A stretch of 64,000 bases of DNA from Streptomyces spinoverrucosus (lineage in GTDB: Bacteria > Actinomycetota > Actinomycetes > Streptomycetales > Streptomycetaceae): NCBI RefSeq assembly GCF_015712165.1, contig NZ_JADPZX010000001.1, positions 5,530,001-5,594,000 of the forward strand, in the 5' to 3' direction. The notes under the pieces were generated by a model. That model had not been told where the DNA came from. It worked only from the letters and a program-made list of their open reading frames with translations, and did not search any database. This document shows, piece by piece, positions 44,701 through 63,103 of this stretch. Positions within the stretch are counted from its first letter, which is position 1; each line of letters starts with the position of its first letter. The translations under genes and the position numbers were made by a program.

Positions 44701-46977
44701 AACGGCACGGTGGAGAACCCCACCCTCGGCCAGCTCGTGGTCGCGGGACGCTGCGCGCAGCCGACCGGCACGACGGCCGGGTCGGCCGTCCGGATCCAGG
44801 CCTGCGACAAGAAGGTGGCGACCCAGCGCTGGCAGACGCTGGACACGGGCCAGATCAAGCTGGTCGGCACGGAACTGTGCCTGTCCACCCCCTCGACGAC
44901 GTCCGGCACGGACCTCACCCTGGCGGCCTGCAACCAGACGCTGGCCACCCAGCTGTGGAAGCCCGCCTCGAAGACGGCGTACGTCTACGACGGCCTGGGC
45001 AACCGCCTGCTGGAGCGCAGCAGTGCGGGCGCGGTGCTGCACCTGCCGGACACGAAGGTGTCCCTGAACACCGCCGGAGGCGTCCGCTACGCGGAGCGCA
45101 CCTACGGGCACGCCGGTGCCCCGTCGGTGACGCGCTACCGGGAGGTGTCCTCCACCGGCGGCACCACCGAGCAACTGTTCGCGCAGGCCACCGACATCAA
45201 CGGCACCCCGCTCGCGGAGGTCCGGCTCGACGGCGGGATGAGCGTCCGGCTGACGAAGAAGGACCCGTGGGGTGCGGATCGCGCCATCAACCCCCAGATG
45301 CGCTCGCACACCACGTTCCACACCGGTGACGACGACGCCGCGACGGGCCTGATCCACCTGGGGGCGCGGGAGTACGACCCGCAGACGGGCCGCTTCATCT
45401 CCGCCGACCCGGTCCTGGACCAGAGCGACCCGCTCCAGGCGAACGGCTACTCCTACGCCAACAACAACCCGGTGACGCACGCCGACCCGAGTGGTCTGAC
45501 GTCGTCGGCGTCGAGCTTCGATGCGTCGATCGCGGCGCTGGAGGCGAAGATCGCCGAGTATCAGCGGACGCTGAACCGTTCGATCGGCGATGTGATCCTG
45601 GCGACCGGCTGGGCGGTGTTCAAGGAGTTCGTCGGCTGGGGCGATGTGGTCGGCTGCTTCTCGCAGGGCGACTTGTGGGCGTGCGGCAGCCTGCTGATGG
45701 ATGCCATTCCGTGGACCAGCGTCTTCTCCAAGGGCAAGAGGATGTGGCGGGCGTTCGAGTCGACGCTGGGCGCGGTGCGGGCGTGGCAGTCGGCGAAGCG
45801 TGCGGCCGAGATCGGCATCAAGGCGGCCCGTGCGGCGAAGGCGTCTTTGATCCGGGCGAAGAAGGCGGCGGAGGCGGCCGCGGCGGAGGCCAAACGCAAG
45901 GCCCGCGCGGCGGCGAAGGCGGCGGCGGAGGCGGCGAAGAAGAAGTCGCACACCGGGTCGAAGGGTGCCCGCGGTAATCCGGTCCAGGTCAAGGCGCGTA
46001 CGACGTCCCAGTCGAAGGGGTCTTCGGGCGGGGGTCGGGCGGAGTCGAAGTCGGGTGGTTCGCGGGGTGGTTCGGGGCGGGAGGACTCGGACTCCGGGGG
46101 CGGCGGCTCGGACTCGGGGGGCGGCGAGGGCGGAAGCTGCCCGACGGTCGACAACAGCTTCACGCCGGACACCAAGGTCCTGATGGCCGACGGCTCCACC
46201 AAGGCGATCAAGGACGTCAAGGTCGGTGACAAGGTCCTGGCGACGGACCCGGAGACGGGCGAGACCCGGGTGGAGACGGTCACCGCCGAGATCCTGGGCA
46301 AGGGCGTCAAGCACCTGGTCAAGGTCACCATCGACACCGACGGCAAGAAGGGCACGCAGACCGCGTCGGTCACGGCGACCGACGGCCACCCCTTCTGGGT
46401 GCCGGAACTGGGCGAGTGGATCGACGCGACCGACCTGCGCGCGGGACAGTGGCTGCGCACCGGCGCCGGCACGCTGGTCCAGATTGCGGCGATCGAACGC
46501 TGGACGACTCTGTGGGCCACGGTCCACAACCTCACCGTCAGCAACCTGCACACGTACTATGTGCTGGCGGGGGCTACGCCGGTCCTGGTTCACAATTGCG
46601 GCGAGGGTGATGGCTACCTTTACCGCGGAGTCCCGAATGAGCATTACAAGTATGATGATGCTTTGGAGGGGCGTGCTGTCCCGCTTGGCGGGCACTCTGA
46701 CCCGGGACGTCACGCGGGCGGTAATACTAATAGTGAGTTCACTTCGTGGACTCATGACTACGAGGACGTCGCTCTTGACGCGGCCGAGGAGCTTGGTCCG
46801 GGAGGGATCGTAATGCGAATCCCGCACGCCAGCGTCCCGGCCGGCAGAGATGTTCGAATCCATGGGACCGAACATGAAGTGTATGAGGAGTCGGAGCATG
46901 CGCTGCGTGGCGTGATCGATGGCGCAGAGATCAGTATCGACAGAGGGCCCTGGCGCAGGCCGGGCGGTGGCGGATAG
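38773..46977 (+). CDS. RHS/YD-repeat polymorphic toxin with HINT domain and ART-like tip
   Basis: 2734 aa. An N-terminal export signal (TGVVAGLVLALNVTLL, residues 34-49) is followed by a long YD-repeat shell (RYTYDPLGR, TYTYDGLGR, TWTYDALGR). A ricin-B lectin insert lies at about 1935-2063 (CLDLAGAITDAGTALQLWPC). The RHS core GLIHLGAREYDPQTGRFISADPV lies near 2195-2215, then an Ala/Lys helix. The HINT domain spans C2456 to HNC2609 and should self-cleave to free the tip. Tip residues 2610-2734 show an ADP-ribosyltransferase-like R-S-E pattern: YLYRGV, EFTSWT, EESEHALRG. GTG start after GAAGGG. The tip has lower GC than the shell. The integrative core lies within HINT codons 2593-2600. Confidence 0.9.
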   Translation: MAVGGVLSWCGRGSLSGRSPRERLIRRRTRTGVVAGLVLALNVTLLPSAVAFGPDDDPRTTVELDELQQTDAVALDEATTDRLDELTGQIDTEPEKEYAPAAVAEVPAASGTKPVDNLAPGTTTEVAASADGTVSVAVGAPEGASPEAADALEGEWSVAVAPEAEAVSSGAQGFMLAVDAPDTATGKAVVSIDATRFAEAYSAQWLDRLSFTLMPACYADTPELEECSTGRPVTTEIERTGDTVTVPLDAGDSSGSEPDPGEDPAPDEPDGSTETTAEVPETLLNLTVDTADLQAVSTGSATNPAVGTGTGGVSPAVWRGSTRTAVRQVAGSSGGGLFVGTSHGGGAGGDFAAAPLVSAGSWSQGGSTGAFTYAYTMAAPQVPAGPSPNVTLSYNSQTSDGRTSATNNQVSWVGEGWDYLPGAITRTFVGCAADTANANNDKHFTGDQCWGTNNAVLSLNGTTTELVRGDEDGQWKSARGDNMRVELLDETKYKDVVGKDVTHTSNNGDNNGEFWRVTTSDGTQYYFGLNRLPGWTSGKPETNSVLNVPVAGNHSTDPCHATKFQDSFCDQGWRFQLDYVVDTSGNAMTLWWEKEKNAYARNMKEKPAVRYDRAGYLKRIDYGQRTGTLFSDEPLGRMAFTAQERCLWDNVLKVPCTDTNFNSKQSHLTRPWFDTPADLACATGGKCSTYAPTFWSRKRLATVTACAQRQQGVRLTEYNDLDDSGSRHACGIKDDGDTTTLLSKVDSWALEQSFPWNLTGEYTALWLESITRTGYAVDGTTEVLNPVSFGHNDSPLPNRVREGAEDRSPVFARLRIQNVISEYGGRTEVIYKKPDGACLTGSDFPPKDKNHGLCYPAYWHADDELADKRISWFNKYLVEQITEYPQLFDAKNVTTTYKYETFDDPVNGALWAKNTAEFSRPKTRTWDQWRGYPTVITETGITDGAEGSVASKSVTRYFRGMSDDVLDDSTPTDESDNPKRSYTMPDITGAGIKADRQAYAGMVAESLTYPDEAAATTTDWISRTVNYPDDPVRLATRNRPAKDGPDVIAERVTLGKTETITKASGQGADKSTLRTVRTETDYDADGLPTEVREYGDINDNRDDACTTTSYVHNTADDNYLVGLVSQTVTTTGTTTCSTELSAGTRSTLVAASRVFYDDAGDHTATPTKGLVTKTLTPTGTGTAWQSDHPESRTTYDEFGRITAVTDPTGLVNRTAYSPSEGQVYGITTVEGSKVVDGNETGFTSTVTVEPGRGATLTAKDANDRVTRYTYDPLGRTAATWDATQSATDDPTARYTYNTDLRKPVSVVMESLEDNPTSAVDGDNAVYERSTTIYDGLGRERQAQTPAVGGGRLVTDTFHNKSGQVRLTRNAYYMEGAPDTEIAAPKSDSLVPNATTYTYDGLGRVLTVTPVHSSFAQTGATYTNGDGTVAHRSTDRRTRYEYGLDYTIVRQPQGTPGSRVWTDALGRTVRQDTFSDTQLSESGAITTTYEYDLRGDMVTSTDDAGHTRTWTYDALGRVTDATDPDTGATHTEYDDYGRVLSARDGRGTTLSYTYERYNRVEQIKATPPNSTTATVVQSYAYDAATGGKGRLASATRYTDGKPYTTSMAGYTADYQPTSMTVALPPGSTPGLTAEGFATQYPYTYKYNSDGQMESYTAPAAGGLTSEAVVTRYNEAGLPVTVSGRDWYVAETAYSPYGQVLRSTVGEQGHRVWQESTFDESTGELLTSKVKRETATESTVNRRSYAYDASGNVLTVADTDGGGITDRQCFTYDTLGQLRQAWTTPSGGSCTASGKSTAEPVYSDGTVNVSSNNAGYWQSYAYDVLGNRTKKTVHKADPTFDAGKVVTDGDVVTDYAYGTSDTGRNDQPHTLTSYTTTSKTAAGATVTTRSTQSYDLAGNLESRGTGGDTAQGLTWTWDNKVETVTGFGADGSGAWVGADSKCLDLAGAITDAGTALQLWPCNGNKAQDFRIRALDSDDNGTVENPTLGQLVVAGRCAQPTGTTAGSAVRIQACDKKVATQRWQTLDTGQIKLVGTELCLSTPSTTSGTDLTLAACNQTLATQLWKPASKTAYVYDGLGNRLLERSSAGAVLHLPDTKVSLNTAGGVRYAERTYGHAGAPSVTRYREVSSTGGTTEQLFAQATDINGTPLAEVRLDGGMSVRLTKKDPWGADRAINPQMRSHTTFHTGDDDAATGLIHLGAREYDPQTGRFISADPVLDQSDPLQANGYSYANNNPVTHADPSGLTSSASSFDASIAALEAKIAEYQRTLNRSIGDVILATGWAVFKEFVGWGDVVGCFSQGDLWACGSLLMDAIPWTSVFSKGKRMWRAFESTLGAVRAWQSAKRAAEIGIKAARAAKASLIRAKKAAEAAAAEAKRKARAAAKAAAEAAKKKSHTGSKGARGNPVQVKARTTSQSKGSSGGGRAESKSGGSRGGSGREDSDSGGGGSDSGGGEGGSCPTVDNSFTPDTKVLMADGSTKAIKDVKVGDKVLATDPETGETRVETVTAEILGKGVKHLVKVTIDTDGKKGTQTASVTATDGHPFWVPELGEWIDATDLRAGQWLRTGAGTLVQIAAIERWTTLWATVHNLTVSNLHTYYVLAGATPVLVHNCGEGDGYLYRGVPNEHYKYDDALEGRAVPLGGHSDPGRHAGGNTNSEFTSWTHDYEDVALDAAEELGPGGIVMRIPHASVPAGRDVRIHGTEHEVYEESEHALRGVIDGAEISIDRGPWRRPGGGG
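46548..46571 (+). other. Attachment core A inside the RHS HINT codons
   Basis: 24 bases identical to copies at 57573 and 63080: arms GCACA and TGTGC around a 7-bp centre CGTACTA, followed by TGGCGGG. This is the layout of a tyrosine-recombinase crossover site. It encodes HTYYVLAG, just before the HNC cleavage junction. I infer attL of element 1. Confidence 0.8.
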
Positions 46978-47034
46978 ACCGCTGCTGGGTGCCGTCTGAG
47001 ACCAAGCGAGTTCACAGATTCGTGGGAGAGTTCC

Positions 47035-47394
47035 GTGGAAAGAAGCCGCCTTGCGCAACTCCTCGCCGGGGCTAGTGAAGTGCGGCTTCTTTCCCGAGCC
47101 GCCCTCGGTGGAGGTGTCGATTACAAGGTCTGGCCTGAAGGCGTCGCAACTCAACGTCTCGTCTCCATCTATGAGAGGCGAGAGCGTGGAACCCGCCGCT
47201 CTGGCCAACCTTCGCTTGGATTCGCTGAAGCACTCGATTCCCTTCGCGCGTATGAGGGCACCGAGCTTGCAATCGGATTCATCGATGATCGACGTCGGGG
47301 CGGGTACTACTTCCAGCTCTTCCTGAACCTGGAACTTAGTTCGGTCGTTGCCTGTTTCGGAGTGAAATCAACTCGGGATCTTCAGGATTCTTAA
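47035..47394 (+). CDS. Candidate immunity protein for the RHS ART-like tip (Imm1)
   Basis: 119 aa, no signal peptide, mixed alpha/beta (RSRLAQLLAGASEV, VATQRLVSIYERRERG, YYFQLFLNLELSSVV). It starts 57 bases after the RHS stop at GTG 47035, preceded by GGGAGAG, and shares the tip's lower GC. Position is the only evidence for immunity; I recognise no family. It lies inside element 1, so the tip and its protection travel together. Confidence 0.65.
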   Translation: MERSRLAQLLAGASEVRLLSRAALGGGVDYKVWPEGVATQRLVSIYERRERGTRRSGQPSLGFAEALDSLRAYEGTELAIGFIDDRRRGGYYFQLFLNLELSSVVACFGVKSTRDLQDS

Positions 47395-47560
47395 GATGGT
47401 CGCCTTCGGGTAAGTTACCTGACGTGATTTCCAGCCAATGGGACCCTGTGGGGTCGGGCCCGAGAAGTCGGTAGTCCGGTTTCGCGGGTTCAGGAAGTGC
47501 CGACTGTTCTGAATGGGATTTCAGGTCCCACGATGGATTTCCCCTGGATTGTTGAGACGG

Positions 47561-47595
47561 CTCGGGGCCCTGCCAGTTTTCGGCAGGGCCCCGAG
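47561..47595. terminator. Perfect 14-bp hairpin between Imm1 and integrase 1
   Basis: CTCGGGGCCCTGCC, loop AGTTTTC, then GGCAGGGCCCCGAG. It separates rightward Imm1 from leftward int and probably stops both transcripts. An equivalent hairpin occurs at 58445 in element 2. Confidence 0.8.
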
Positions 47596-47600
47596 GTGTT

Positions 47601-47622
47601 TGACGGCAACGCTGACGGCAAC
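47601..47622. repeat. Arm-type integrase repeats, left side of element 1
   Basis: Two direct TGACGGCAAC copies (47601 and 47613, 12-bp spacing) immediately after the integrase stop. The same decamer pairs recur at 57461, 58487 and 62968, always near an element end. I infer arm-binding sites of the integrase. Confidence 0.75.
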
Positions 47623-47623
47623 G

Positions 47624-48907
47624 TCAGCGGACGACGCCTGCGGCGGATGGTTCGTCAGGGTCGTCGTCCTGGGCGCCGAGGGCGTTGCCGAGGGTTTCGA
47701 TGGCTTGGCGCTGGAGGCGGAGTCGGACGTGGGCGTAGACGTCGGCGGTGACGCCGATGTGGGAGTGGCCGAGGAGTTCCTTGATCACCACGAGGTCGAC
47801 TCCCTGTTCCAGAAGCAGGGTGGCGGTCGAGTGGCGGAGGTCGTGAAACCGGATGCGACGCAGTCCTGCGCGGTTGAGGAGTCGGCTGAACCTGCGGGTG
47901 AGGTTGGCGGGTTCGAGAGGACCGCCGGTGGGGGTGGTGAACACGAGGCCGTTGTCCGACCAGCCCGTCCCCGCGGCCCGGCGTGCTTCCTCCTGCTGTT
48001 CCCGGTGGGTCTTCAGGGAGTTGACGCATTCGGTGGGGAGGGCGATGCGACGCTCGGAAGCGCGGGTCTTGGTGTGCAGGACGGTCAGGCCGCCGGTGCG
48101 GGTGCGCTGGAGGGAACGGTGGATGGCGGCGGTTCCCGTGTTGAGGTCGAGGTCGTCCCAGTGCAGCCCGAGGAGTTCGCCCTTGCGGAGTCCGGTGCGT
48201 AGGGCGAGTTCGTACAGCGCGTGGTGTCGGTCGCTGCTGGCTGCGTGGAGGAACTGCCGGGCCTCGCTTGCGGTGAAGGGCTTGAAGCGCCGGGTGCGGG
48301 GTGCGGGGGTTTTTACGTTGCGGGCGACGTTGCGTGGCAGGTCGTCTTCGCGGACGGCGTGCTCCAGGGCGGACTTGAGGACCGAGTGGACGTAGGTCAC
48401 GGTCAGCGGGGAGAGCCGCTTATTGCAGCACTGGCCGATGGCGCAGCAGGAGCGCCGGTCGGTGTCCCGCCCCTGGGTGCAGCACTGGCAGGCGACGCGG
48501 AGGTGGTCGAGGAAGGTGCGGACGTCGCGGGCGGTGAGTCGGGCGAGCTTCTCGACCCCGAGCTCGGGGTCGAGATGGAGGCGGACGCAGGCGGCGTAGC
48601 GGGTGTGAGTGTTCTCCCGCACCTGGTGCACGGCAACGCCGTTCAGCCAGTACGTCAGGTACGTACTGACGGTGCTGTCGGCCGCCGCGACGGGCAGGCC
48701 AAGGTTGCTGGCGGCGATCTTCTCGGTGAGCTTGGCCAGGGCCTCCTTACGGCTGGTGCCGTAGACGCGGACGCGCTTGCGGGTATTGCCGGGAGCGAGG
48801 ACGTACCCGGCGGCTTCCCAACGGCCGTCCTTGCGCTGATAGACGGTCCCGTCGCCGTTGGCGCGGGAGCGGGTGCGGCGGGATGAGGCGGGGCGCGGCG
48901 TGGTCAT
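47624..48907 (-). CDS. Tyrosine site-specific integrase of element 1
   Basis: 427 aa. N-terminal arm-binding region (GDGTVYQRKDGRWEAAGYV), SAM-like core-binding domain with a Cys-rich insert (CQCCTQGRD...CCAIGQCC, around residues 142-162) that may bind metal, then the catalytic domain. Catalytic residues: Arg in LRTGLRKGELLGLHW, HxxR in FHDLRHSTATLLLEQG, His/Trp-position GHSHIG and Tyr in TADVYAHV. ATG 48907 overlaps the xis stop (TGATG). It is close kin to the element 2 integrase. It should recombine the three cores seen here. Confidence 0.93.
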   Translation of the reverse strand: MTTPRPASSRRTRSRANGDGTVYQRKDGRWEAAGYVLAPGNTRKRVRVYGTSRKEALAKLTEKIAASNLGLPVAAADSTVSTYLTYWLNGVAVHQVRENTHTRYAACVRLHLDPELGVEKLARLTARDVRTFLDHLRVACQCCTQGRDTDRRSCCAIGQCCNKRLSPLTVTYVHSVLKSALEHAVREDDLPRNVARNVKTPAPRTRRFKPFTASEARQFLHAASSDRHHALYELALRTGLRKGELLGLHWDDLDLNTGTAAIHRSLQRTRTGGLTVLHTKTRASERRIALPTECVNSLKTHREQQEEARRAAGTGWSDNGLVFTTPTGGPLEPANLTRRFSRLLNRAGLRRIRFHDLRHSTATLLLEQGVDLVVIKELLGHSHIGVTADVYAHVRLRLQRQAIETLGNALGAQDDDPDEPSAAGVVR

Positions 48908-49134
48908 CAGGCGGCGGCTTCCTGTTCGAGGCGGGCACGGATGAAGTCGGTCAGAGCGTGGGTGGGGATGCGGCGGGCGCGGCCGAGGGTGATCGAGGCG
49001 AGTTGGCCGGAGCGGAGCAGGTCGTAGACGGCGGAGCGGCCGAGCTGGAGGCGGACCATCACCTGGGGCACCGTGAGCAGATCCAGCGCCGGTGCCGCCT
49101 CCGTGCGGTGAGCGGTGAGCGGGGGCGAGGTCAT
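48907..49134 (-). CDS. Excisionase-like MerR-type helix-turn-helix protein (Xis1)
   Basis: 75 aa. The HTH core LLTVPQVMVRLQLGRSAVYDLLRSGQLASITLGRARRIP (residues about 21-60, quoted as landmarks LTVPQVM and RSAVYDLLRSG) matches HTH_17 excisionases. Sits directly between rep and int with one-base overlaps on both sides (TGATG), as in pSAM2 repSA-xis-int. Expected to bias the integrase toward excision. Confidence 0.88.
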   Translation of the reverse strand: MTSPPLTAHRTEAAPALDLLTVPQVMVRLQLGRSAVYDLLRSGQLASITLGRARRIPTHALTDFIRARLEQEAAA

Positions 49135-50558: not shown

Positions 50559-50590
50559 TCGGGGCGTGTCCCTTCAGTTCGGGTGGGCGA

Positions 50591-50636
50591 CCCCGAGCAG
50601 CAACCAGTCAGGAAGGCGTGTTGGTGCTGCTCGGGG
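50591..50636. terminator. Hairpin between DUF2637 gene and rep
   Basis: CCCCGAGCAGCA pairs with TGCTGCTCGGGG, with a further ACCA/TGGT extension across one bulge. It lies in the leader of rep and could terminate tra-operon transcription or attenuate rep expression. Confidence 0.6.
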
Positions 50637-50706
50637 CATGGCGGACCGGGCCCATCAGGTGGGCGTGGAGTTACGCGAGGGGGATGCGGCCGGTGAGGGC
50701 CGGGGC

Positions 50707-51432: not shown

Positions 51433-51462
51433 GATCTCAACCTCCGTTCTGGGAAGGGTCGT

Positions 51463-52860: not shown

Positions 52861-52861
52861 G

Positions 52862-53565: not shown

Positions 53566-54459
53566 ATGAAGCTGCCCCTGGGAGAGGACCCCCGGCCGCC
53601 GTACGTCCAGGCCGCCGACGTCCTGCGCACCGCCATCCACGACGGCGAGCTGCGCCCAGGCGAACGGCTCCCCGCCGCGCGCGAGCTGCAACGACGCTTC
53701 GGCATCGCCAGCTCCACCGTCCAAAACGCCCTGCGGCTCCTCAAGGAGGAGGGGCTGATCTACTCCGTCCTGGGGCGGGGTAGCTACGTCCGCGCGCCGA
53801 AGCCGATCGTGACCACCGAAACGGAGGTCGTCACGGCAGAGGAAGACGAGGTTGATCCCGGCGAGTCCGATCCCGAGTACACCGGTCTCGCTACGCTCCG
53901 ACGTGGTTGGCAGACCGCCGACAGCCCCCCTGACGATCCCCGCCCCCCGTACGTGCGGACCGCGGACGAACTCCGCAAGCAGATCAAGGACGGCCGGCTC
54001 GCACCGGGTGCCAAGCTCCCGTCCGCCCGGGATCTGCAAGCCCAGTACGGCATCGCCAACTCCACGGCGCAGAACGCCCTGCGCGTCCTCAAGGAGGAAG
54101 GGCTGGTCTACTCCGTGCAGGGCCGAGGCGTATTCGTCCGCCAGCTCAGCCCGCGCGATCAGTTCCTCAAGCGCTACAACGAGGGACTGGAGGAGATGGT
54201 GGCCCAGCGCCGGGCGGACGAGGAAGCGGTACGACTCAGCGGCAAGACCGATGACGAGGTAGCCGCCGAACTCGCCGCCGCCGAGGAACGGTTCACCAAG
54301 GCCAGCACCGAGTTCGAAGCCGCTACCGCCCACCGTGACGCCATGCGCGCCGTCATGGAGCAACGCAAGCGCCTCAGCGGCAACTACACGCCCGAGGAGA
54401 CCGCAGCCAGCGCTCAGCGCCTGCGCGACCGACTGGACGAAGGCAGACGCCGACGCTGA
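53566..54459 (+). CDS. KorSA-like GntR regulator with two winged helix domains
   Basis: 297 aa with a duplicated GntR HTH: residues about 11-75 (LRPGERLPAARELQRRFGIASS, LLKEEGLIYSVLGRGSYV) and about 130-200 (LAPGAKLPSARDLQAQYGIANS, VLKEEGLVYSVQGRGVFV). A C-terminal coiled-coil-prone helix follows. KorSA in pSAM2 represses the activator and transfer functions. The doubled DNA-binding domain suggests binding of paired sites or self-dimerisation in cis. ATG 53566. Confidence 0.88.
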   Translation: MKLPLGEDPRPPYVQAADVLRTAIHDGELRPGERLPAARELQRRFGIASSTVQNALRLLKEEGLIYSVLGRGSYVRAPKPIVTTETEVVTAEEDEVDPGESDPEYTGLATLRRGWQTADSPPDDPRPPYVRTADELRKQIKDGRLAPGAKLPSARDLQAQYGIANSTAQNALRVLKEEGLVYSVQGRGVFVRQLSPRDQFLKRYNEGLEEMVAQRRADEEAVRLSGKTDDEVAAELAAAEERFTKASTEFEAATAHRDAMRAVMEQRKRLSGNYTPEETAASAQRLRDRLDEGRRRR

Positions 54460-55205: not shown

Positions 55206-55371
55206 TCCGGCGAAGCTGCCCGACCGACGAGGGACCCCCTCCCGCTCAGGCCCGATCCTGCCGGAGCCCGGCCCGCCACGTGGTGAGGCACCCCTGCGGG
55301 CGGGTGTCTGCCGGATCGCCCCCAGGTGATGTGCCGGCCGGGCGTACCGTGGAGTGGGAGGTGGTGAGTTG

Positions 55372-56619
55372 ATGACTACGGAGCTGGCCGACAACGTCCG
55401 CAAGTACCGGCGTCGCGCGGGGATGAGCCAGGAGGAACTGGCCCACGCCGCAGGCGTATCACCGGGCACGGTACGCAAGGCCGAGCAGGGCGGCACTCTC
55501 CGCATGGAGACCCTGCACACGCTCGCCCGAGCGCTGGGGGTGACCACCGCCGCCTTGATGGCGTCCGATGCCCCGGAGCCTGTCGGGCGGACCGAGGAGC
55601 CGAACCGCGTCAACCTGATCCAGCTCCGCGCCGCCCTCACCCCAGCCGTCGGGCTCGTGGACCAGGACGCCGAAGCCGTGGCCGAGGAACCGAACCTGCG
55701 CACCTTCCGACGGACGCTGCAAGACGCACGGGTGCTGTACTTCTCCGACAGCTACAAGAGCGTCGCGGCCCAACTGCCAGTCCTGCTGCGTGATGCCGCA
55801 CAAGCCGTCGCCTACTACGACAGCGGGGACGAGCACCGGCAGGCCCTGCTGGCCCGCGCCGAAGCGCTGCGTCTGGCCGGCACCTACCTCACCCAGGTCC
55901 GGCAGTACGACATCGCGTACGCCGCTGTACGTGGCGCCATCAAGGACGCCCGTCAGGCCGGAGACATGCTCGCGGCGGGCTCAGGTGTCGGCTGCATGTG
56001 CTGGCTGCTGGTGCGCCAGGGAAGGCTGGACGAGGCGGAACAGGTCGCCGCCCAGAGCATGGACGCGGTAGAGCCGAAGATCACCGGGGCCGAGCCGGAC
56101 CACTACGCGGTGTGGGGCGGCCTGGCGATGGAGGCCGCCGCCGCAGCCGCGAGGAACAACCGTCCCGACGAGGCGAAGGCGTACCGTCAAGCCGCCCGGG
56201 TCGCGGCAACCGCCATCGGGACGGCACATCGCAACGTCTCCCGGCACTGGTCCGTCTTCGGGCCGGTCACCGCCGCGGTCAAGGCACTCGAAGACTCCAT
56301 GGTCATTGGCGACGCCCGCGCGGTGGTGCGCAAGGCAGGCGAGCAGGAGGAGTTGTCACCCAAGGCGTGGAAGCGCCTGGGCAGGCCCAGCACCAACGAC
56401 GGGAACCGCTTCACCCTCGATGTGGCGCGCGCCCACACCCGGACCGGCGACCTGTCCGCCGCCATGGACGAGCTGACCCGTGCCAGGGAAGCCGCCCCGC
56501 AATGGCTGCGGCACCAGAACGGGGCCGCCGAGACCATGCAGGAGATCCTGGGCAAGCGGAAGCGCACCCTAACGACGGAGATGCGCGAAATGGCCGACTA
56601 CCTGGGCGTTATCGGGTAG
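55372..56619 (+). CDS. XRE-family regulator with TPR-like C-terminal domain
   Basis: 415 aa. N-terminal XRE HTH (LADNVRKYRRRAGMSQEELA, AGVSPGTVRKAEQGG) followed by about 300 residues of helical tetratricopeptide-like repeats (RAEALRLAGTYLTQVRQYDIA, LLVRQGRLDEAEQVAAQSMD). Such proteins are common in Streptomyces and in AICEs, some responding to peptides. ATG 55372 has GGGAGGTGG upstream. It may be the activator of excision/transfer analogous to Pra; that is a guess. Confidence 0.85.
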   Translation: MTTELADNVRKYRRRAGMSQEELAHAAGVSPGTVRKAEQGGTLRMETLHTLARALGVTTAALMASDAPEPVGRTEEPNRVNLIQLRAALTPAVGLVDQDAEAVAEEPNLRTFRRTLQDARVLYFSDSYKSVAAQLPVLLRDAAQAVAYYDSGDEHRQALLARAEALRLAGTYLTQVRQYDIAYAAVRGAIKDARQAGDMLAAGSGVGCMCWLLVRQGRLDEAEQVAAQSMDAVEPKITGAEPDHYAVWGGLAMEAAAAAARNNRPDEAKAYRQAARVAATAIGTAHRNVSRHWSVFGPVTAAVKALEDSMVIGDARAVVRKAGEQEELSPKAWKRLGRPSTNDGNRFTLDVARAHTRTGDLSAAMDELTRAREAAPQWLRHQNGAAETMQEILGKRKRTLTTEMREMADYLGVIG

Positions 56620-56746
56620 CTGCCACGCAGCGTGGCAGTTCGTGAACCAAGAGTCGTGAACTGCCATGGCTCTCAACTGGGGTGACAGTCAGTCAGTGCC
56701 TACGGTCAGTGTGTCCACGATCCGTGACCCAGGCCGGGGGTGCCCA

Positions 56747-57121: not shown

Positions 57122-57404
57122 CTCTGCGGACACCGACGCACCGGTCCGCGACTCCGCACGGGGGCGCTACCGATTCCGCGAGTACCACGTGACCACCGTC
57201 CCCGACCCCCTGGCTCTGCCGGCCTTCACGGCGGTCTGCGTCACCGCCGGCGAGGAAAGCAACTGCGGTGCCACATCCGGCACCCTGGACACCCCGGACG
57301 AGCTGACGTGCTGGATCGCCCGACACTGCGCCCAGACCGGCCACCAGCACTACGAGCAGACCGTCCGAGCCATACTCCGTGCCGAGCCCGGAGCGTGGCA
57401 GTAA
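57114..57404 (+). CDS. DUF7848-like small protein
   Basis: 96 aa: YRFREYHVTTVPD, then a sparse Cys pair (VCVTAGEESNCGA), LTCWIARHCAQTGHQHYEQT. The W-x2-RHC-x2-(T/N)xH pattern recurs in the element 2 gene at 61011 (WVLRHCGQNPSHHTY), so both elements carry this family. Possibly metal binding. Last gene before the right arm repeats and core B. Confidence 0.65.
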   Translation: MPDSADTDAPVRDSARGRYRFREYHVTTVPDPLALPAFTAVCVTAGEESNCGATSGTLDTPDELTCWIARHCAQTGHQHYEQTVRAILRAEPGAWQ

Positions 57405-57460
57405 AGTCCCCCTGCGCCAACACCGCGCCAGCGGCAGCGCCACCCTGCGCCCCGCGCTCC

Positions 57461-57482
57461 TGACGGCAGTAGCGACGGCAAC
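57461..57482. repeat. Arm-type integrase repeats, right side of element 1
   Basis: TGACGGCAGTAG (57461) and a second copy GACGGCAAC (57474), followed by CGCACAACCACGGACACC at 57499, all also present upstream of core C. Inferred P-arm sites. Confidence 0.7.
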
Positions 57483-57572
57483 ACCCACAGATTCCCCCGC
57501 ACAACCACGGACACCAGCGGAACCCAAAACCGCCGCTGATCTGCGAATACGCAGATAGAGAGGGGCCGTGTA

Positions 57573-57596
57573 GCACACGTACTATGTGCTGGCGGG
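57573..57596 (+). other. Attachment core B
   Basis: Identical to core A over 24 bases. Preceded by CGTGTAG, so a TAG stop sits directly before the HTYY codons. Reading frame into the tip is the same as in RHS. It serves as attR of element 1 and attL of element 2 (inferred). Confidence 0.8.
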
Positions 57597-58032
57597 GGCC
57601 ACTCCGGTCCTGGTTCACAACTGCAATACGTCTTATCAGCTGTCGCTCGATACGCGAGCCGCAGTCGGTAGTGGAAATGCGCAGGCATACCAGATTGCAC
57701 ACACCGGAGCGACCGAATACCGTGCCGTCGGTGGCGGAGAGAGAGTCTGGGCTGACGGTTTCGACAGAAACACTGGAGAACTTCTCGATGCCAAGTTCAT
57801 TGAGAAGCCTGGACGTAGTCCGTTCATTCCAGGATCAGGCATTCCCGACTTCATTCGGAACAAGATTGCGGCTAAGACCGATGACGAGTTCAGAAGATAT
57901 TCTGCCGTGATCAATGATCCTTCCAATCCTCTGACGGGGCTACGCGTGATCACCAACCATCCCGGTGCGGTGCCATACTTCCAAGGGTTGATGCAGCAGC
58001 ATGGCATCCCAGGCTCAGTGGTTGTGAGATAG
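57574..58032 (+). CDS. Orphan RHS tip 2: restriction-endonuclease-fold toxin module
   Basis: 152 codons open from HTYYVLAGATPVLVHNC to the stop, with no own RHS shell; TAG lies immediately upstream. A GTG at 57586 could start a short form without signal. The tip (about 135 aa) has AYQIAHTGATEYRAV, VWADGFDRNTGELLDAKFIEK and LRVITNHPGAVPYFQGLM, which I recognise as the Tox-REase-2 type, with E...D...DAK as the PD-(D/E)XK signature. GC is lower than in the shell. Becomes part of RHS in frame if element 1 excises (inferred). Confidence 0.78.
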   Translation, partial: HTYYVLAGATPVLVHNCNTSYQLSLDTRAAVGSGNAQAYQIAHTGATEYRAVGGGERVWADGFDRNTGELLDAKFIEKPGRSPFIPGSGIPDFIRNKIAAKTDDEFRRYSAVINDPSNPLTGLRVITNHPGAVPYFQGLMQQHGIPGSVVVR

Positions 58033-58042
58033 GAGCAGGTCA

Positions 58043-58411
58043 GTGACGTACCTCGCCGTCTTTGAGAGCGACACATGGCGTCTGGAGCGAGAGGTTCTGG
58101 CGCGGGCGCTTGCTAGCGACTGGCCGCAAGTCCAGCTGAAACTGGCTTCCCCTGGATCCCCAGGTTCCGAGGTTCGCGATGTGGAATGGAGCTACCAAGC
58201 GGAATTGGGTGAGCTTGAGGGATACGCGCACTCGGACGGGCAGGGGATCTACCTGGAAGGGCCCATCGAACTCGTGGCTGACTTTGTCGTCTGGTATCGG
58301 GGGCTGGTGCCGCCCGAGGAGCAAGTCATCTTCTGTGATGACTCCTACAGCTTCGATGGCGTAGTCTCGACGAACGCGGTAAGAGAAGACATCATCGCCA
58401 TCACCGAGTGA
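58043..58411 (+). CDS. Candidate immunity protein for tip 2 (Imm2)
   Basis: 122 aa, acidic, cytosolic: MTYLAVFESDTWRLE, GIYLEGPIELVADFVVWYRG, VIFCDDSYSFDGVV. GTG 58043 lies 10 bases after the tip 2 stop with AGGAGC before it. Position gives the role; the family is not identified. It remains intact although the tip is silent, as expected if sister cells still fire it. Confidence 0.68.
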   Translation: MTYLAVFESDTWRLEREVLARALASDWPQVQLKLASPGSPGSEVRDVEWSYQAELGELEGYAHSDGQGIYLEGPIELVADFVVWYRGLVPPEEQVIFCDDSYSFDGVVSTNAVREDIIAITE

Positions 58412-58444
58412 GTGACCCCGTTCGAGAATTGCACTGCAAAGGAG

Positions 58445-58479
58445 GGGAGGCCCTGCCGGAGTTTCCGGCAGGGCCTCCC
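58445..58479. terminator. Perfect 15-bp hairpin between Imm2 and integrase 2
   Basis: GGGAGGCCCTGCCGG, loop AGTTT, then CCGGCAGGGCCTCCC. Same place and similar sequence as the hairpin at 47561. Confidence 0.8.
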
Positions 58480-58486
58480 TGGCGTT

Positions 58487-58509
58487 TGACGGCAGTAGAT
58501 GACGGCAAC
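58487..58509. repeat. Arm-type integrase repeats, left side of element 2
   Basis: TGACGGCAGTAG (58487) and TGACGGCAAC (58500), directly after the integrase 2 stop, matching the pair at 47601. Confidence 0.72.
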
Positions 58510-58510
58510 G

Positions 58511-59818
58511 TCAGCGGACGAGGGCGGCGCAGGGTGGCGGTTCGTCGCCCTTACTCTCGACTGCCTCGATGATCGCCGGGGTGTTGAGTGCGGTGCTGAG
58601 GGTGTCGATGGCGTCTCGCTGGATGCGGAGCCTTACGTGGGCGTAGACGGTGGCGGTGACGCCGATGTGGGCATGGCCGAGGAGTTCCTTGATCACGACG
58701 AGTTCGACGCCCTGCTCCAGGAGCAAGGTCGCGGTGGAATGCCTGAGATCGTGGAAGCGGATGCGGCGGCAGCCAGCCTTGCGAAGGAGCGTGGTGAAGG
58801 TGCGGGTGAGGTTGGTCGGGTCGATCGCTCTGCCCTGGGCAGTGGCGAACACATGTCCGTTGTGCTGCCACGTGGTTCCTGCGGCCTCACGTTCGCGCTG
58901 CTGCTGTTCTTGGTGGAGTTTCAGCGAGTGGAGGCAGCGGGTGGGGAGGGCGACGCGGCGCTCGGAGGCGCGCGTTTTGGTGGGCAGCGTGGTGAGTGTG
59001 CCTGTGCTGGTGCGCTGGAGGGTTCGGCGGATTGCGGCGGTACCGGCGTCGAGGTCGAGGTCTTCCCAGTGGAGGCCGAGTAGTTCGCCCTTGCGGAGTC
59101 CGGTGTGAAGGGCGAGTTCGAACAGTGCGTGCAAACGGTGACCTTGCGCGGCGGTGAGGAGCTGGCGGGCTTCGTCGGCGGTGAGTGGTTCGAAGCGTCG
59201 GGGCCGTGGGGTGCCGGTGCGGACGTTGCGGGCGACGTTGCGCGGGATCTCCTCCTCGCGGACGGCGTGCTCCAGGGCGGACTTGAGCACGGAGTGTATG
59301 TAGGTGAGCGTCAGCGGGGAGAGCAGCTTGTGGCAGCACTGGCCGACGGCGCAGCAGCGGGGCTGGTCGCGCCGGGCGTCGAGGCGACGGGTGCAGCACT
59401 GGCAGGTGGTGCGGAGCTGGTTGAGCCAGGTGCGGACGTCTTTGGCGGTGAGCTTGCTGAGCTTCTTCTTGCCGAGGCCGGGGATGAGGTAGCGGTTGAC
59501 GCAGGTGGTGTAGCGGGTGTGGGTGTTTTCGCGGAGGTGGTGGACGGCGACGTTCTCCAGCCAGTACGTCAGGTAGGCGGCCACGCTGCCTTGCGCGGAG
59601 GGGACGGGGAGGCCGCGGTTGCTGGCGGCGATCTTCTCGGTGAGTTTGGCCAGGGCTTCTTTGCGGGTGGTGCCGTAGACGCGGATGCGCTTGCGGGTGT
59701 TGCTGGGGGCGAGGACGTATCCGGCGGCTTCCCAGCGGCCGTCCTTGCGCTGGTAGACGGTGCCGTCGCCGTTGGCGCGGGTGCGGCGGGAGGCGGGGTT
59801 GTCTCGGGGCCTGGTCAT
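58511..59818 (-). CDS. Tyrosine site-specific integrase of element 2
   Basis: 435 aa, clearly homologous throughout to integrase 1 (shared GDGTVYQRKDGRWEAAGYVLAP, Cys-rich insert CQCCTRRLD...CCAVGQCC, RTGLRKG-type LHTGLRKGELLGLHW, FHDLRHSTATLLLEQG, GHAHIGVTATVYAHV). All catalytic positions (R, HxxR, H, Y) are present. ATG 59818 overlaps the xis2 stop. The open frame continues upstream but the xis gene occupies that DNA. Differences are spread along the protein, so it is a diverged sister rather than a recent duplicate. Confidence 0.92.
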   Translation of the reverse strand: MTRPRDNPASRRTRANGDGTVYQRKDGRWEAAGYVLAPSNTRKRIRVYGTTRKEALAKLTEKIAASNRGLPVPSAQGSVAAYLTYWLENVAVHHLRENTHTRYTTCVNRYLIPGLGKKKLSKLTAKDVRTWLNQLRTTCQCCTRRLDARRDQPRCCAVGQCCHKLLSPLTLTYIHSVLKSALEHAVREEEIPRNVARNVRTGTPRPRRFEPLTADEARQLLTAAQGHRLHALFELALHTGLRKGELLGLHWEDLDLDAGTAAIRRTLQRTSTGTLTTLPTKTRASERRVALPTRCLHSLKLHQEQQQREREAAGTTWQHNGHVFATAQGRAIDPTNLTRTFTTLLRKAGCRRIRFHDLRHSTATLLLEQGVELVVIKELLGHAHIGVTATVYAHVRLRIQRDAIDTLSTALNTPAIIEAVESKGDEPPPCAALVR

Positions 59819-60045
59819 CAGGCGGCGGCTTCCTGGTCGAGGCGGGTGCGAATGAAGTCGGTGAGGGCGTGGGCGGGGATGCGGCGGGCGCGGCCGAGGG
59901 TGATCGAGGCGAGCTGGCGGGTGCGGAGGAGGTCGTAGACCGTGGAGCGGCCGAGCTGGAGGCGGGCCATTACCTGGGGAACCGTCAGCAGCTCCTCGGA
60001 CGTGCTCGGTCCCTCGTCGGGCGCGGCGGGTGCCTGCATAGTCAT
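59818..60045 (-). CDS. Excisionase-like protein of element 2 (Xis2)
   Basis: 75 aa, nearly the same HTH as Xis1 (LLTVPQVMARLQLGRSTVYD, LASITLGRARRIPAHAL, DFIRTRLDQEAAA) with a different N-terminal 20 residues. One-base overlaps with int2 and the rep2 remnant are kept. Confidence 0.88.
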   Translation of the reverse strand: MTMQAPAAPDEGPSTSEELLTVPQVMARLQLGRSTVYDLLRTRQLASITLGRARRIPAHALTDFIRTRLDQEAAA

Positions 60046-60495
60046 CAGCAGCCCCCTTCCGCGATGAACTGCCGTTCCAGTTCTCTGCGGTGCCAGACAG
60101 CGGCGGCAAGGAATGCGGCGCCGGGGCTGTAGCCGCTGCCGAGGTAGGCCCAGTGGCCGATGACGAGGGTGGTGTCCGGGTCGGGCTCGGGCAGGCCGGT
60201 GTGGGCGCGGGCTTGTTCGGTGCGCCAGGCGCGGCGGGCGTCGCGCAGCGCGCCGAGGGTGGTGGAGTAGCGGCGGGACTTGGTGGAGAAGTGGCCCCGG
60301 AAGCCGAGCATGTGTGCCCACTTCCAGAGCTTGAGGTGGGCGAACTCGGGCAGCCTGCCGAGCTCCCAGCAGGTGCGGATCATCTGCCGCACGTGCAGGG
60401 CGACGGCGAGTCGGGGCAGGGGGCGGGCCTGTCCGGTTCCGTCGCATGCGGTGCAGGGGAGTGGGGTGCCGTGGAGCAGGAGGGTGGCGCCGTGA
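60045..60495 (-). pseudogene. 3' remnant of a RepSA-like initiator gene
   Basis: About 150 codons matching the C-terminal third of rep1 (GATLLLHGTPLPCTACDGTGQ, IRTCWELGRLPEF, WKWAHMLGFRGHFSTKSR). The homology stops near 60495; the HUH and Tyr motifs are missing. The DNA next to the break resembles 54900-54960 of element 1, marking a large internal deletion. Confidence 0.85.
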
Positions 60496-61010
60496 CGCGG
60501 GCCGCCGCGCGCCGGCGGCCGGTGACCGCCGCCCGCTCCTGTCTACCGCCCCGCTGGCGACGGCCGCCGACCACTCGGCGCGCAGAGCCGGGAGCATAGG
60601 CCGGACTGCCAACCGAGAGCCCCGCTGTCCGACCGCTCAGCAGCAGACCGACCGGGCACCCGAGAGGCCGTCCGGCAAGCTCGTACCGTGCGGCGTCGGT
60701 ATCCCGGCGGTGCTGTCGTCTGGAACGCCGGCCGTGGTGCCTGGCTGGGGCCGTGACGATGGAGATAACTGGGCTGATACCGGTGCGGGGTTGAGCGAGG
60801 CACACATGGCGGGTGATCAGTCGGCGCGCCCGCCGTCGTGGCTGACTTTCTGTGGCTGAGGCCAAAGCCTCACCGCCATGGGCACGGCACGCACGTGAGG
60901 GCCCGCCCCTGCCGAGGCTGACGAGGACGGGGGAGCCTGGATCGGTCGCGCCGGCAGGGACGGGAGTCGGGTGGGTCAGCGCGGTGCGGTGCTCGGGCGA
61001 GCGGGGCGGG
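60496..61010. other. 515-bp junction region without a supportable gene
   Basis: The first 70 bases share GCCGCCCGCTCCTGTCT and CGCCCCGCT with 54918-54943 of element 1. The rest is GC-rich with no convincing frame. Confidence 0.5.
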
Positions 61011-61247
61011 TCAGGTCTGCCGCCAGGCCCGCCAGGGCCGGGTGATGATCTCCCGGTAGGTGTGGTGGGACGGGTTCTGGCCGCAGTGCCGCAGCACCCA
61101 GTCCTGCGGTTCGGCGAAGTCCTCGCTTGTCGGGGACGTCTCTCCGTCTACGGCGCACTGCATCGCGTACAGGACCGGCTCCGCGTCCGGCTCGCGGTCA
61201 GGCTGGAGAGTCCAGGTCTCGTAGCGGAGGACCGAGCGAGGGGTCAC
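61011..61247 (-). CDS. DUF7848-like small protein of element 2
   Basis: 78 aa: SVLRYETWTLQPD, YAMQCAVDGETS, WVLRHCGQNPSHHTYREI. Related in plan to the 96-aa protein at 57114 but on the other strand. GTG 61247 with GGAGG upstream, overlapping the previous stop as GTGA. Confidence 0.7.
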   Translation of the reverse strand: MTPRSVLRYETWTLQPDREPDAEPVLYAMQCAVDGETSPTSEDFAEPQDWVLRHCGQNPSHHTYREIITRPWRAWRQT

Positions 61248-61486
61248 CGTCCCCACCTCCGGTTGGCCACGGCCACCTTGGCACTCAACTCCTCGGCCGT
61301 AGTCGGCGGACGTACGTCCTCGGGCGGCACGTCCCACTCCCGGCCACCGCGCGGCGGCCGAAGCTGCACGTACGGACCCACATGCCCCATCACCACGCCC
61401 ACCTTGCCGTTCCGTCGGTCGACCACCAGGGCGCCGACATCGGGCGAGACGGTGTGCCCGTCGGTATCAGGGATGGGGGCCGTCAT
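61244..61486 (-). CDS. Small protein of unknown function
   Basis: 80 aa: SPDVGALVVDRRNGKVGVVMG, VQLRPPRGGREWDVPPED, a small beta-barrel-like pattern. ATG 61486 has GGGGTGG upstream. Coupled to the DUF7848-like gene. Widespread in Streptomyces as a companion of DUF7848; function unknown. Confidence 0.65.
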   Translation of the reverse strand: MTAPIPDTDGHTVSPDVGALVVDRRNGKVGVVMGHVGPYVQLRPPRGGREWDVPPEDVRPPTTAEELSAKVAVANRRWGR

Positions 61487-61741
61487 CGTGACCACCCCGG
61501 TGAGGCGGTGCGCGACCGGGCGTCCAGTCGCAGGGCGGGAACACATGGGGTGGTGCTCTTTCGCACGGTGATGCTCCTCGGCGGCGTGGATGCGTGCCCC
61601 TGGGCCCGTCGGTGCCGCAGGGTCGGCATCGATCCTCACGCCGGTCACCGGGACGAAGGAACCTCCACCAAACCCCACTCCGGGACGTCCCGCACCATGT
61701 AGAACGTCCCTGGTGCCGTCCTGAGACGAAGGGGGAGACTC

Positions 61742-62488
61742 GTGCCGAACGAGAGACTACGAGCCGTCATGGCAGCCGGAGGCTGGACATACGCCACCCT
61801 CGCCCAGGAAGTCGAGATCGACCCCAAGTCGGTCGAGCGCTGGGTGAACCTCGGGCGCACCCCACGCCGTGCCACAGCCCTACAGGCGGCCAAAGCCCTG
61901 GGAGAAGACGTGCACGCACTCTGGCCGGCACTCCGCCAAGCCCGCCCCGCCCGCGCCATCAGCCCTGAGCTGGTGGCGCTTTACGAACAGCGCGCCGACA
62001 TCCCCGTTTCGGCGTTCACCGACCTGATGGCCCAGGCCCGGGAACGGATCGACATCCTCGTCTACGCAGCCGTATTCCTCCACGAGGCGTACCCGCGGCT
62101 GAACGAACTCCTCACCGAACGCGCCGCCGAAGGCTGCACCGTCCGCATCGCAGTCGGGGACGCCGACAGCGACAACGTCCAAGCCCGCGGCCAGGAGGAG
62201 CGGTTCGGCCACGGCATCGAATCCCGCTGCCGCCTCGCACTCATGCACTACAGACCGCTCGTCGGCACCCCCGGCATCGACGTCCGCACCCACGGCACCA
62301 CGCTCTACAACTCCCTCTACCGCGCCGACGACCAGCAACTCGTCAACGCCCATGTCTGGGGCGTCAACGCCTACGCCGCCCCGGTATGGCATCTTCGTCG
62401 ACACGAGACAGGCGGCATGTTCGACACCTACGCCGAGAGCTTCGACGCGGTGTGGGCGACGGCGACGCCAGTACGAGAGGAACGCTGA
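61742..62488 (+). CDS. HTH regulator with phospholipase-D-like C-terminal domain
   Basis: 248 aa. N-terminal HTH-like region (RAVMAAGGWTYATLAQEVEI, SVERWVNLGRTPRRATA) and a C-terminal region with PLD-like strands (RIDILVYAAVFLHEAYPRL, VRIAVGDADSDNV, TTLYNSLYRADDQQLVNAHV). No complete HKD motif is present, so the fold may only bind ligand or DNA. GTG 61742 after GGGGGAG. The NUDIX gene follows after two bases. Confidence 0.78.
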   Translation: MPNERLRAVMAAGGWTYATLAQEVEIDPKSVERWVNLGRTPRRATALQAAKALGEDVHALWPALRQARPARAISPELVALYEQRADIPVSAFTDLMAQARERIDILVYAAVFLHEAYPRLNELLTERAAEGCTVRIAVGDADSDNVQARGQEERFGHGIESRCRLALMHYRPLVGTPGIDVRTHGTTLYNSLYRADDQQLVNAHVWGVNAYAAPVWHLRRHETGGMFDTYAESFDAVWATATPVREER

Positions 62489-62490
62489 CC

Positions 62491-62961
62491 GTGGCCCGCA
62501 CCGAGTACTACGACGACCCCAGCGCACCCCAGCCGAACAGCATGGTCGTCGCCGCATCCGCCGTCGTCACCGACGACCACGGGCACATCCTCCTCCAGCG
62601 CCGCCGCGACAACGACCTATGGGCGCTGCCCGGCGGCGGCATGGAGCTGACCGACTCCCTGCCCGGCACGGCCGTCCGCGAAGTCAAGGAAGAGACCGGC
62701 CTCGACGTCGAGATCACCGGCCTGGTCGGCACCTACACCGACCCGAAACACATCATCGCCTACACCGACGGCGAGGTCCGCCGCCAGTTCAACGTCTGCT
62801 TCACCGCCCGCATCACCGGCGGCCGACTGGAGATCTCCGACGAGTCCACCGAACTCCGGTTCGTGCCGCCCGAAGAGATCGAGCCGTTGCCGATGCACCA
62901 CACCCAACGGCTCAGGCTCCAGCACTTCCTGGAACACCGTGAGAAGCCGTACCTGGGCTGA
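62491..62961 (+). CDS. NUDIX hydrolase, Pif-like candidate
   Basis: 156 aa. Nudix box GGGMELTDSLPGTAVREVKE then ETGL is complete (G-x5-E-x7-REVxEE). VAASAVVTDDHGHILLQRRR precedes it. GTG 62491 has GAGAGGAACG upstream. pSAM2 encodes a NUDIX protein, Pif, that blocks transfer between cells already carrying the element; this protein, next to the core in a related element, may do the same. The alternative is nucleotide housekeeping. Confidence 0.85.
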   Translation: MARTEYYDDPSAPQPNSMVVAASAVVTDDHGHILLQRRRDNDLWALPGGGMELTDSLPGTAVREVKEETGLDVEITGLVGTYTDPKHIIAYTDGEVRRQFNVCFTARITGGRLEISDESTELRFVPPEEIEPLPMHHTQRLRLQHFLEHREKPYLG

Positions 62962-62967
62962 ACCGGC

Positions 62968-62990
62968 TGACGGCAGTAGCTGACGGCAAC
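62968..62990. repeat. Arm-type integrase repeats, right side of element 2
   Basis: TGACGGCAGTAG (62968) and TGACGGCAAC (62981), then CGCACAACCACGGACACC near 62996, matching the set at 57461-57516. Confidence 0.72.
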
Positions 62991-63079
62991 AACCCCGCAC
63001 AACCACGGACACCCACGCACTTCACCGGACCAGCAAACCACGCTTGACCTGCGAAAAAGCAGGTCGATGGTGCCGCGTA

Positions 63080-63103
63080 GCACACGTACTATGTGCTGGC
63101 GGG
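63080..63103 (+). other. Attachment core C
   Basis: Same 24 bases as cores A and B, preceded by CGCGTAG (TAG stop immediately before the HTYY codons). Sequence after the core diverges by silent changes (e.g. GCCACGCCAGTCCTCGTA) while the protein stays identical. Inferred attR of element 2. Confidence 0.8.

What the first reader, a model, noticed from the sequence alone, without database searches (positions are those of the whole stretch)
46548..63103. Integrative elements use the RHS HINT codons as attachment site and swap the toxin tip in frame
Seen: a 24-bp sequence occurs at 46548, 57573 and 63080, each time followed by codons for the same HTYYVLAGATPVLVHNC block, a different toxin tip and a different immunity gene. 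Two units with integrase and excisionase lie between the copies. The core has inverted arms GCACA/TGTGC around 7 bp, as tyrosine recombinases need. Because the crossover lies in HINT codons just before the HN-C cleavage junction, any incoming tip is fused in frame and keeps its self-release site. Inference: the elements are mobile toxin-tip cartridges, and integration converts the host's RHS effector. I know of no description of this arrangement.
Basis: partly seen in the sequence, partly recalled or inferred. Interest (0 to 1): 0.97.

Follow-up and report, generated by a model that had tools for sequence, protein, structure and literature searches.

The report
Mobile elements that swap toxin tips
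In Streptomyces and related soil bacteria, integrative DNA elements sit exactly inside the codons of the predicted self-cleaving part of giant RHS toxin genes, and each brings its own in-frame toxin end, so that their insertion likely changes which toxin the cell makes and pushes the old toxin end downstream, where it is predicted to be silent.

Summary
Confirmed, and broader than the window. The 24-bp core occurs three times in the window (0 expected) and a fourth time 7.5 kb beyond core 3. Core 1 lies in HINT codons of a 2734-aa RHS protein; tips 2 and 3 lie behind a stop codon. Of 175 related integrase genes or fragments elsewhere, 155 have the core beside their 3' end (14 do not, 5 are at contig edges, 1 is too distant). 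Of 46 sister integrases listed, 20 were examined: all lie by tRNA genes, none by a core. Near-identical elements (98% over 6 kb from the core on) are attached to dissimilar RHS genes. One orthologous RHS locus holds 11 tip families in 14 species; the tip fused in one is the displaced tip in another. The core is fixed at DNA level (TAT in 206 of 210 sites; background 10%). So elements of one integrase clade use HINT codons as attachment site and carry a tip plus a predicted immunity gene. Excision, transfer, HINT cleavage and toxicity are untested. Six of the 14 orthologous sites show no trace of an element, so other routes of tip change are not excluded. My searches of open-licence papers found no description.

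The parts
38773..46977 (+). RHS protein, 2734 aa: RHS core, ricin-B lectin domain, PT-HINT (residues 2470-2608), then tip 1
46548..46571 (+). core 1, in HINT codons; junction of host RHS gene and unit 1 (attL by inference)
46597..46977 (+). tip 1, after the HN codons, fused in frame
47035..47394 (+). predicted immunity gene 1 (position only; no Pfam or NCBIfam hit)
47624..48907 (-). integrase 1 (P0004, 427 aa; motifs TGLRKGELLGL at 238, HDLRHSTATLL at 355, VYAHV at 390)
48907..49134 (-). excisionase-family gene
   Evidence: TIGR01764
49134..50558 (-). RepSA-type replication initiator
   Evidence: PF20199, 510 bits
51463..52860 (-). possible FtsK/SpoIIIE-type transfer protein (weak, below the curated cut-off)
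53566..54459 (+). GntR-type regulator
55354..56619 (+). helix-turn-helix regulator
57515..57596 (+). right end of unit 1 (inverted repeat, TAG) and core 2
57622..58032 (+). tip 2, displaced, Tox-REase-2
58043..58411 (+). predicted immunity gene 2 (position only)
58511..59818 (-). integrase 2 (P0005)
59805..59995 (-). DNA 90% identical to the first excisionase region
   Evidence: family D4
60045..60503 (-). truncated copy of the rep region
   Evidence: families D1 and D8
62386..62961 (+). NUDIX gene near the right end of unit 2
63023..63103 (+). right end of unit 2 and core 3
63129..63527 (+). tip 3, displaced, DddA-like
63534..64000 (+). predicted immunity gene 3 (position only; runs off the window)

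Best explanation
Integrative elements of one integrase clade, of pSAM2 type by their RepSA gene, lie with their attachment core inside the HINT codons of RHS toxin genes and each carries its own in-frame toxin tip and a predicted immunity gene beside its integrase, so that integration likely replaces the tip of the host's RHS effector and shunts the old tip downstream behind a stop codon. Likely course: the integrase recombines the core of the element with the core in the RHS gene, within about 11 bp (ACGTACTATGT). Everything downstream of the crossover is exchanged: the last dozen or so HINT codons, tip, predicted immunity gene and element. The right end of the element has an in-frame stop and often a hairpin, so displaced tips, and by inference the tip on an excised circle, are not made as part of an RHS protein. 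New elements enter at the RHS-proximal core and older ones decay further out, leaving arrays of tips. Shown by sequence: positions, frame, stop codons, clade-specific linkage, single orientation, breakpoints at the core, and occupied, decayed and apparently empty orthologous sites. Inferred: catalysis, excision, conjugation, HINT release, toxin and immunity function.
For: Core copies and frames. 155 of 175 integrase genes or fragments have the core on their 3' side; of 134 main integrases 122 have it on the 3' side in the same orientation, 0 in the opposite one; 0 of 20 sister integrases, which lie by tRNA genes. In 46 of 46 pairs printed with tips of 88% or more, homology starts within the first 5 bases of the core, while the 100 nt before it are at most 76% identical in 21 of 22 fused pairs. 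Orthologous locus: tip displaced in G104 is the fused tip of G367 (79% aa; DNA homology from 4 bases before the core), with RHS flanks 80-85% identical. Synonymous positions of the core are fixed: TAT 206 of 210 against 200 of 2002. 97 of 104 right ends have an in-frame stop within 18 codons.
Against: 14 of 175 integrases lack the core nearby. 6 of 14 orthologous sites (two of them seen for only 3.8 and 5.2 kb) and 13 of 20 other core loci have neither clade integrase nor right end, yet have varied tips; either elements were lost without trace or tips also change by other routes. The possible transfer protein scores below its cut-offs. Within pattern-found loci the TAT codon is only 29 of 39. 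Monophyly of the HINT-linked integrases has only moderate support (0.767). No excision was observed.
Confidence: 0.9

Rival explanations
1. Tips are exchanged by ordinary homologous recombination across the conserved HINT end, as proposed for enterobacterial rhs genes; the integrases are bystanders.
For: The HINT end is conserved, and homology between orthologous loci runs to its end at about +46 to +70. Tips differ also where no element is seen.
Against: Units 98% identical over 6 kb are attached to dissimilar RHS genes; integrase and tip travel together, in one orientation; the core is conserved at synonymous positions; right ends share a signature; sister integrases show no such link.
Confidence: 0.06
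2. The swaps are history: the arrays in this strain and most others are fossils and no element moves now.
For: Many later units have broken or lost integrases: in 31 loci with two or more, the first is full length in 28, later ones in 10 of 35 (biased, because full-length hits were the entry point). Unit 2 has a truncated rep, unit 3 no integrase.
Against: Unit 1 has intact integrase, excisionase and RepSA frames. 98% identity over 6 kb between elements in two species (L217, L218) points to recent spread.
Confidence: 0.15
3. The repeated HINT ends come from tandem duplication or breakage of RHS genes, with integrases inserted by chance.
For: Arrays of dissociated rhs tips are common in other bacteria (PMC2935791, passages).
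Against: Upstream of displaced cores lies element right end, not RHS sequence; unit boundaries coincide with the core in species after species.
Confidence: 0.01

Closest known systems
Actinomycete integrative and conjugative elements (AICEs; pSAM2)
   Same: Tyrosine integrase, excisionase, RepSA, GntR regulator, direct repeats at the ends, tandem accretion (accretion is described in PMC9513070, passages).
   Different: Integrates in HINT codons of toxin genes instead of, mostly, tRNA genes, and the cargo completes the target protein. PMC9513070 reports 14 insertions in protein-coding genes; their table is in a supplement that I could not read; 'Rhs' has 0 occurrences in the main texts of PMC3218068 and PMC9513070.
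C-terminal tip displacement of enterobacterial rhs genes
   Same: New tips displace old ones, which stay downstream as silent fragments; a circular intermediate was proposed (PMC2935791, passages).
   Different: [quoted passage not shown] Here an integrase and a short core are linked to the swap, across dissimilar RHS genes.
Polymorphic toxin systems with HINT pre-toxin domains
   Same: RHS stalk, HINT, exchangeable tip with a following gene (PMC3482391, passages of the first 300,000 characters).
   Different: No integrase-borne route is mentioned in the held text ('integrase' 0 occurrences).
Contact-dependent inhibition genes on mobile DNA
   Same: Toxin and immunity on a mobile element; loss exposes the cell to siblings (PMC4927057, abstract and passages).
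   Different: There the delivery gene moves too; here only tip and predicted immunity gene, using the host's delivery gene.

Membership tests
AICE (pSAM2 type) | tyrosine integrase and excisionase | tested here: met
AICE (pSAM2 type) | RepSA-type replication initiator | tested here: met
   PF20199, 510 bits; NCBIfam RepSA 587 bits, below its cut-off of 700
AICE (pSAM2 type) | FtsK/TraB-type transfer protein | tested here: inconclusive
   18.6 bits, cut-off 24; TraB 17.6 bits, cut-off 800
AICE (pSAM2 type) | direct repeats at both ends (attL/attR) | tested here: met
AICE (pSAM2 type) | integration in a tRNA gene (usual, not required) | tested here: not met
   no tRNA in the window; core in HINT codons
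AICE (pSAM2 type) | excision and conjugative transfer | not testable with these tools
   needs an experiment
Polymorphic RHS toxin | RHS region, HINT, variable C-terminal toxin domain | tested here: met
Polymorphic RHS toxin | cognate immunity gene after the tip | tested here: inconclusive
   genes are there; two of three scanned, no Pfam or NCBIfam hit
Integron and gene cassette | integron-type integrase acting on cassettes that carry no integrase | tested here: not met
   integron integrase model 50.3 bits, cut-off 265; the units carry their own integrase

The most novel reading that the evidence does not exclude
RHS toxin genes of Streptomycetaceae are standing docking slots for conjugative elements: on arrival an element reprograms the recipient's weapon and gives it the matching immunity in one step, so that the recipient joins the donor's kin group; loss of the element restores the older tip and exposes the cell to its siblings, which would keep the element in the population. 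The frozen synonymous codons of the core would then be kept as an attachment site shared by host genes and elements across the family.
Probability: 0.45. Interest if true: 0.96.

Novelty: new variant of a known kind. Interest (0 to 1): 0.9.

Why it matters
How polymorphic toxins change their tips is an open question; [quoted passage not shown] Here a widespread family of site-specific elements is linked to the swap, across dissimilar RHS genes and species, and the step can be tested directly. It also shows the coding DNA of a self-cleaving protein segment serving as attachment site, so that an incoming domain is fused in frame and, by inference, keeps its release junction.

Tried and rejected
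Tandem RHS duplication: rejected, because upstream of displaced cores lies element right end and not RHS sequence. A tRNA attachment site: no tRNA in the window; the sister integrases lie by tRNAs, this clade does not. Second copy of the tRNA-Arg end in the sister loci, to map their attachment core: in the 18 of 20 loci with the exact tRNA stretch none was found within the 8.5-9.8 kb held, so their core is not known here. Matching a tip displaced in locus A with the same tip fused in an orthologous locus B: none in the first set; one later (G104 and G367). A clean empty partner for G104: G007 looked empty but holds a right end without integrase; G131 is the better empty site. Trees: the first was uninformative at the root, IQ-TREE timed out, FastTree on 65 sequences gave 0.767 for the HINT group and 0.931 for the tRNA-Arg group. 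Structure prediction, fold search and the protein database search were not used.
Full report
1. The observation. The core GCACACGTACTATGTGCTGGCGGG is exact at 46548, 57573 and 63080 and nowhere else in the window with up to 3 mismatches; 100 shuffles gave none. Core 1 lies in an RHS gene of 2734 aa with PT-HINT (residues 2470-2608), a ricin-B lectin domain and an RHS core. Cores 2 and 3 have TAG directly before them. After each core come the codons HTYYVLAGATPVLVHNC and a different tip; tip 2 hits Tox-REase-2 and tip 3 DddA-like. Unit 1 (11025 bp) has integrase, excisionase and RepSA and a GntR regulator; a possible FtsK-type transfer protein scores below the curated cut-offs. Unit 2 (5507 bp) has an integrase and copies of the excisionase and part of the rep region. 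The array goes on to core 4 with tip 4 at C1:5600604 and an integrase remnant behind it; unit 3 (7523 bp) has no integrase detected. A second RHS locus of the same genome shows a fused tip, a displaced tip behind the same right-end signature, and integrase fragments.

2. The integrase clade is tied to the core. P0004 was searched in 392 genomes of the genus; 105 have a match at E <= 1e-100. Its list splits (my hand count, own genome left out) into 88 places at 63% identity or more and 46 at 52% or less. I fetched 80 regions for the first group and 20 of the 46 of the second, and 77 named loci from another collection, the best kept of 274 candidates; their record titles are mostly Streptomyces, with Kitasatospora, Actinacidiphila, Streptacidiphilus and one labelled Saccharothrix. 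Over these sets, identical sequences counted once and the window left out, there are 175 integrase genes or fragments: 108 have an RHS-fused core and 47 a displaced or tandem core within 3.5 kb on their 3' side, 14 have none, 5 are at contig edges, 1 is too distant. Of 134 main integrases with enough flank, the core is on the 3' side in the same orientation in 122, on the 5' side in the same orientation in 12, and in the opposite orientation in 0. All 20 second-group integrases lie by tRNA genes, 19 by tRNA-Arg (ACG) and 1 by tRNA-Thr, and none has a core nearby. Of the 14 misses I looked at seven: L097 and L111 have a tip with core remnants but no HINT frame upstream, L108 has a core further out, L065 and L103 have transposase-like frames at the junction, L107 and L126 show nothing recognised (the names of the transposase-like frames are my reading of the translations).

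3. Both sides of the core. Of 107 distinct ORFs upstream of fused cores, 106 match the window's HINT; of the 87 that are at least 700 aa long, 82 match its RHS part and 5 do not. 61 tips (58 of 97 listed, and the window's three) were scanned: 21 Pfam families are hit, each by one or two tips, so at most 28 of 61 have a hit; they are nucleases, RNases, deaminases, ADP-ribosyltransferase folds and others. First units have a median of 8533 bp (78 units, 1445 to 16537 bp).

4. Breakpoints at the core. 249 distinct sites give 128 pairs that share a tip (75% or more over 200 nt or more), 67 fused-fused and 52 fused-displaced. In all 46 pairs printed (tips 88% or more), homology begins within the first 5 bases of the core and in most runs through tip and next gene into the integrase; L217/L218 are 98% identical for 5983 nt. 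Yet in 21 of 22 fused pairs the last 100 nt before the core are at most 76% identical; the exception is 87%. Conversely, two RHS genes of G080 are identical for 1500 nt up to the core and then carry different tips.

5. One locus in many species. A query from the RHS gene of G007 matched 17 of 392 genomes at E <= 1e-200. In 14 the core follows; in G196, G228 and G254 no core was found in 19 kb. The 14 fused tips form 11 families (shared: G338/G131, G104/G333, G067/G267). States: intact integrase, right end and displaced tip, 1 (G104); right end with integrase fragment, 2 (G049, G128); right end without integrase, 1 (G007); integrase fragments without right end, 4 (G367, G381, G333, G267); neither, 6 (G338, G131, G097, G067, G317, G139). 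The six include G338 and G097, of which only 3.8 and 5.2 kb beyond the core were seen. Left-flank homology between loci with different tips ends at about +46 to +70 from the core, the end of HINT; the right flank resumes at about +1.0 kb in G131, +1.9 in G317, +2.0 in G007, +7.1 in G049, +7.9 in G381 and +10.1 in G104. The displaced tip of G104 is the fused tip of G367 (79% aa over 114; 77% DNA over 1164 nt beginning 4 bases before the core), while the RHS genes before the fused cores are 85% and 80% identical in two stretches. That is a natural before-and-after pair, in two species. Of 20 other core-bearing loci chosen by hand, 7 hold fragments of a clade integrase (2 of these also a second right end) and 13 hold neither, one of the 13 with an unrelated integrase.

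6. DNA-level constraint. In 119 sites Thr is ACG in 117, the first Tyr TAC in 118 and the second Tyr TAT in 118, while third positions outside vary. Over all integrase-linked sites TAT is 206 of 210; in the 1500 nt before 138 fused cores 200 of 2002 Tyr codons are TAT; in pattern-found loci TAT is 29 of 39. The CAT variant of the first codon is in 8 of 63 fused and 0 of 56 displaced sites, as expected if it is host sequence left of the crossover. With GTG/GTA variants to the right, about 11 bp (ACGTACTATGT) remain for strand exchange; this is inference. The 5-7-5 shape resembles a tRNA anticodon arm (tRNA-Arg of the sister loci: TCTGA-CTACGGA-TCAGA). Descent from tRNA-targeting elements is inference; the tree is only moderately supported.

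7. Right end. 97 of 104 displaced cores have an in-frame stop within 18 codons, 52 directly before the core and 40 six codons before; 7 have none in that range. Displaced sites were defined by a short upstream frame, so some stop is expected by definition; its fixed place is not. 68 of 104 have a perfect 5-7 bp hairpin, against a mean of 22.2 in shuffles. I infer that displaced tips are not made as RHS fusions; other starts were not excluded.

8. Literature. Passages of PMC2935791, PMC3482391, PMC3218068, PMC9513070 and PMC4927057 were seen; all other papers only as search listings. Searches listed no paper that by title and abstract start describes this arrangement; several showed only the best 12-20 of more hits. 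The library holds open-licence papers only, and supplements could not be read.

9. Verdict. The mechanism is strongly supported by comparative sequence and untested at the bench. It joins two known kinds, AICEs and exchangeable toxin tips, in a way that I did not find described. HINT self-cleavage at HN-C, and the roles of tip and next gene, rest on established knowledge of these families and were not tested.

Noticed in passing
L021 and L020 (own genome C1:5907486-5918726): A second RHS locus with fused and displaced tips and several integrase fragments of the same clade.
   Followed up: partly
element right ends, e.g. window 57540-57572 and 63045-63079: Inverted repeat (ACCTGC..GCAGGT and variants), most often 14-19 nt before the core: 68 of 104 right ends against 22.2 in shuffles. 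Terminator or recombinase-binding site?
   Followed up: partly
window 61742-62961; G007 near C1:1345433-1345896: An HTH and a NUDIX gene near the right end of unit 2; a closely similar NUDIX stretch stands before the right end of the integrase-less relic in G007.
   Followed up: no
L019:4122-5702: Unit 3, without integrase, carries an asparagine-synthase-like gene.
   Followed up: no
window 35039-38434: Divergent neighbour of the RHS gene: a 1131-aa protein with a DNRLRE domain.
   Followed up: no
L084 and L085 (G301:C1 near both ends): The same locus appears at both ends of one contig, as in terminal inverted repeats.
   Followed up: no
L097, L111: Tip with core next to an integrase but no HINT frame upstream: secondary site or later deletion?
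   Followed up: no
G196, G228, G254 (L351-L353): Three of 17 matching RHS loci without a recognisable core; what ends the RHS gene there was not examined.
   Followed up: no
P0001 residues 1936-2062: Ricin-B lectin domain inside the RHS part.
   Followed up: no
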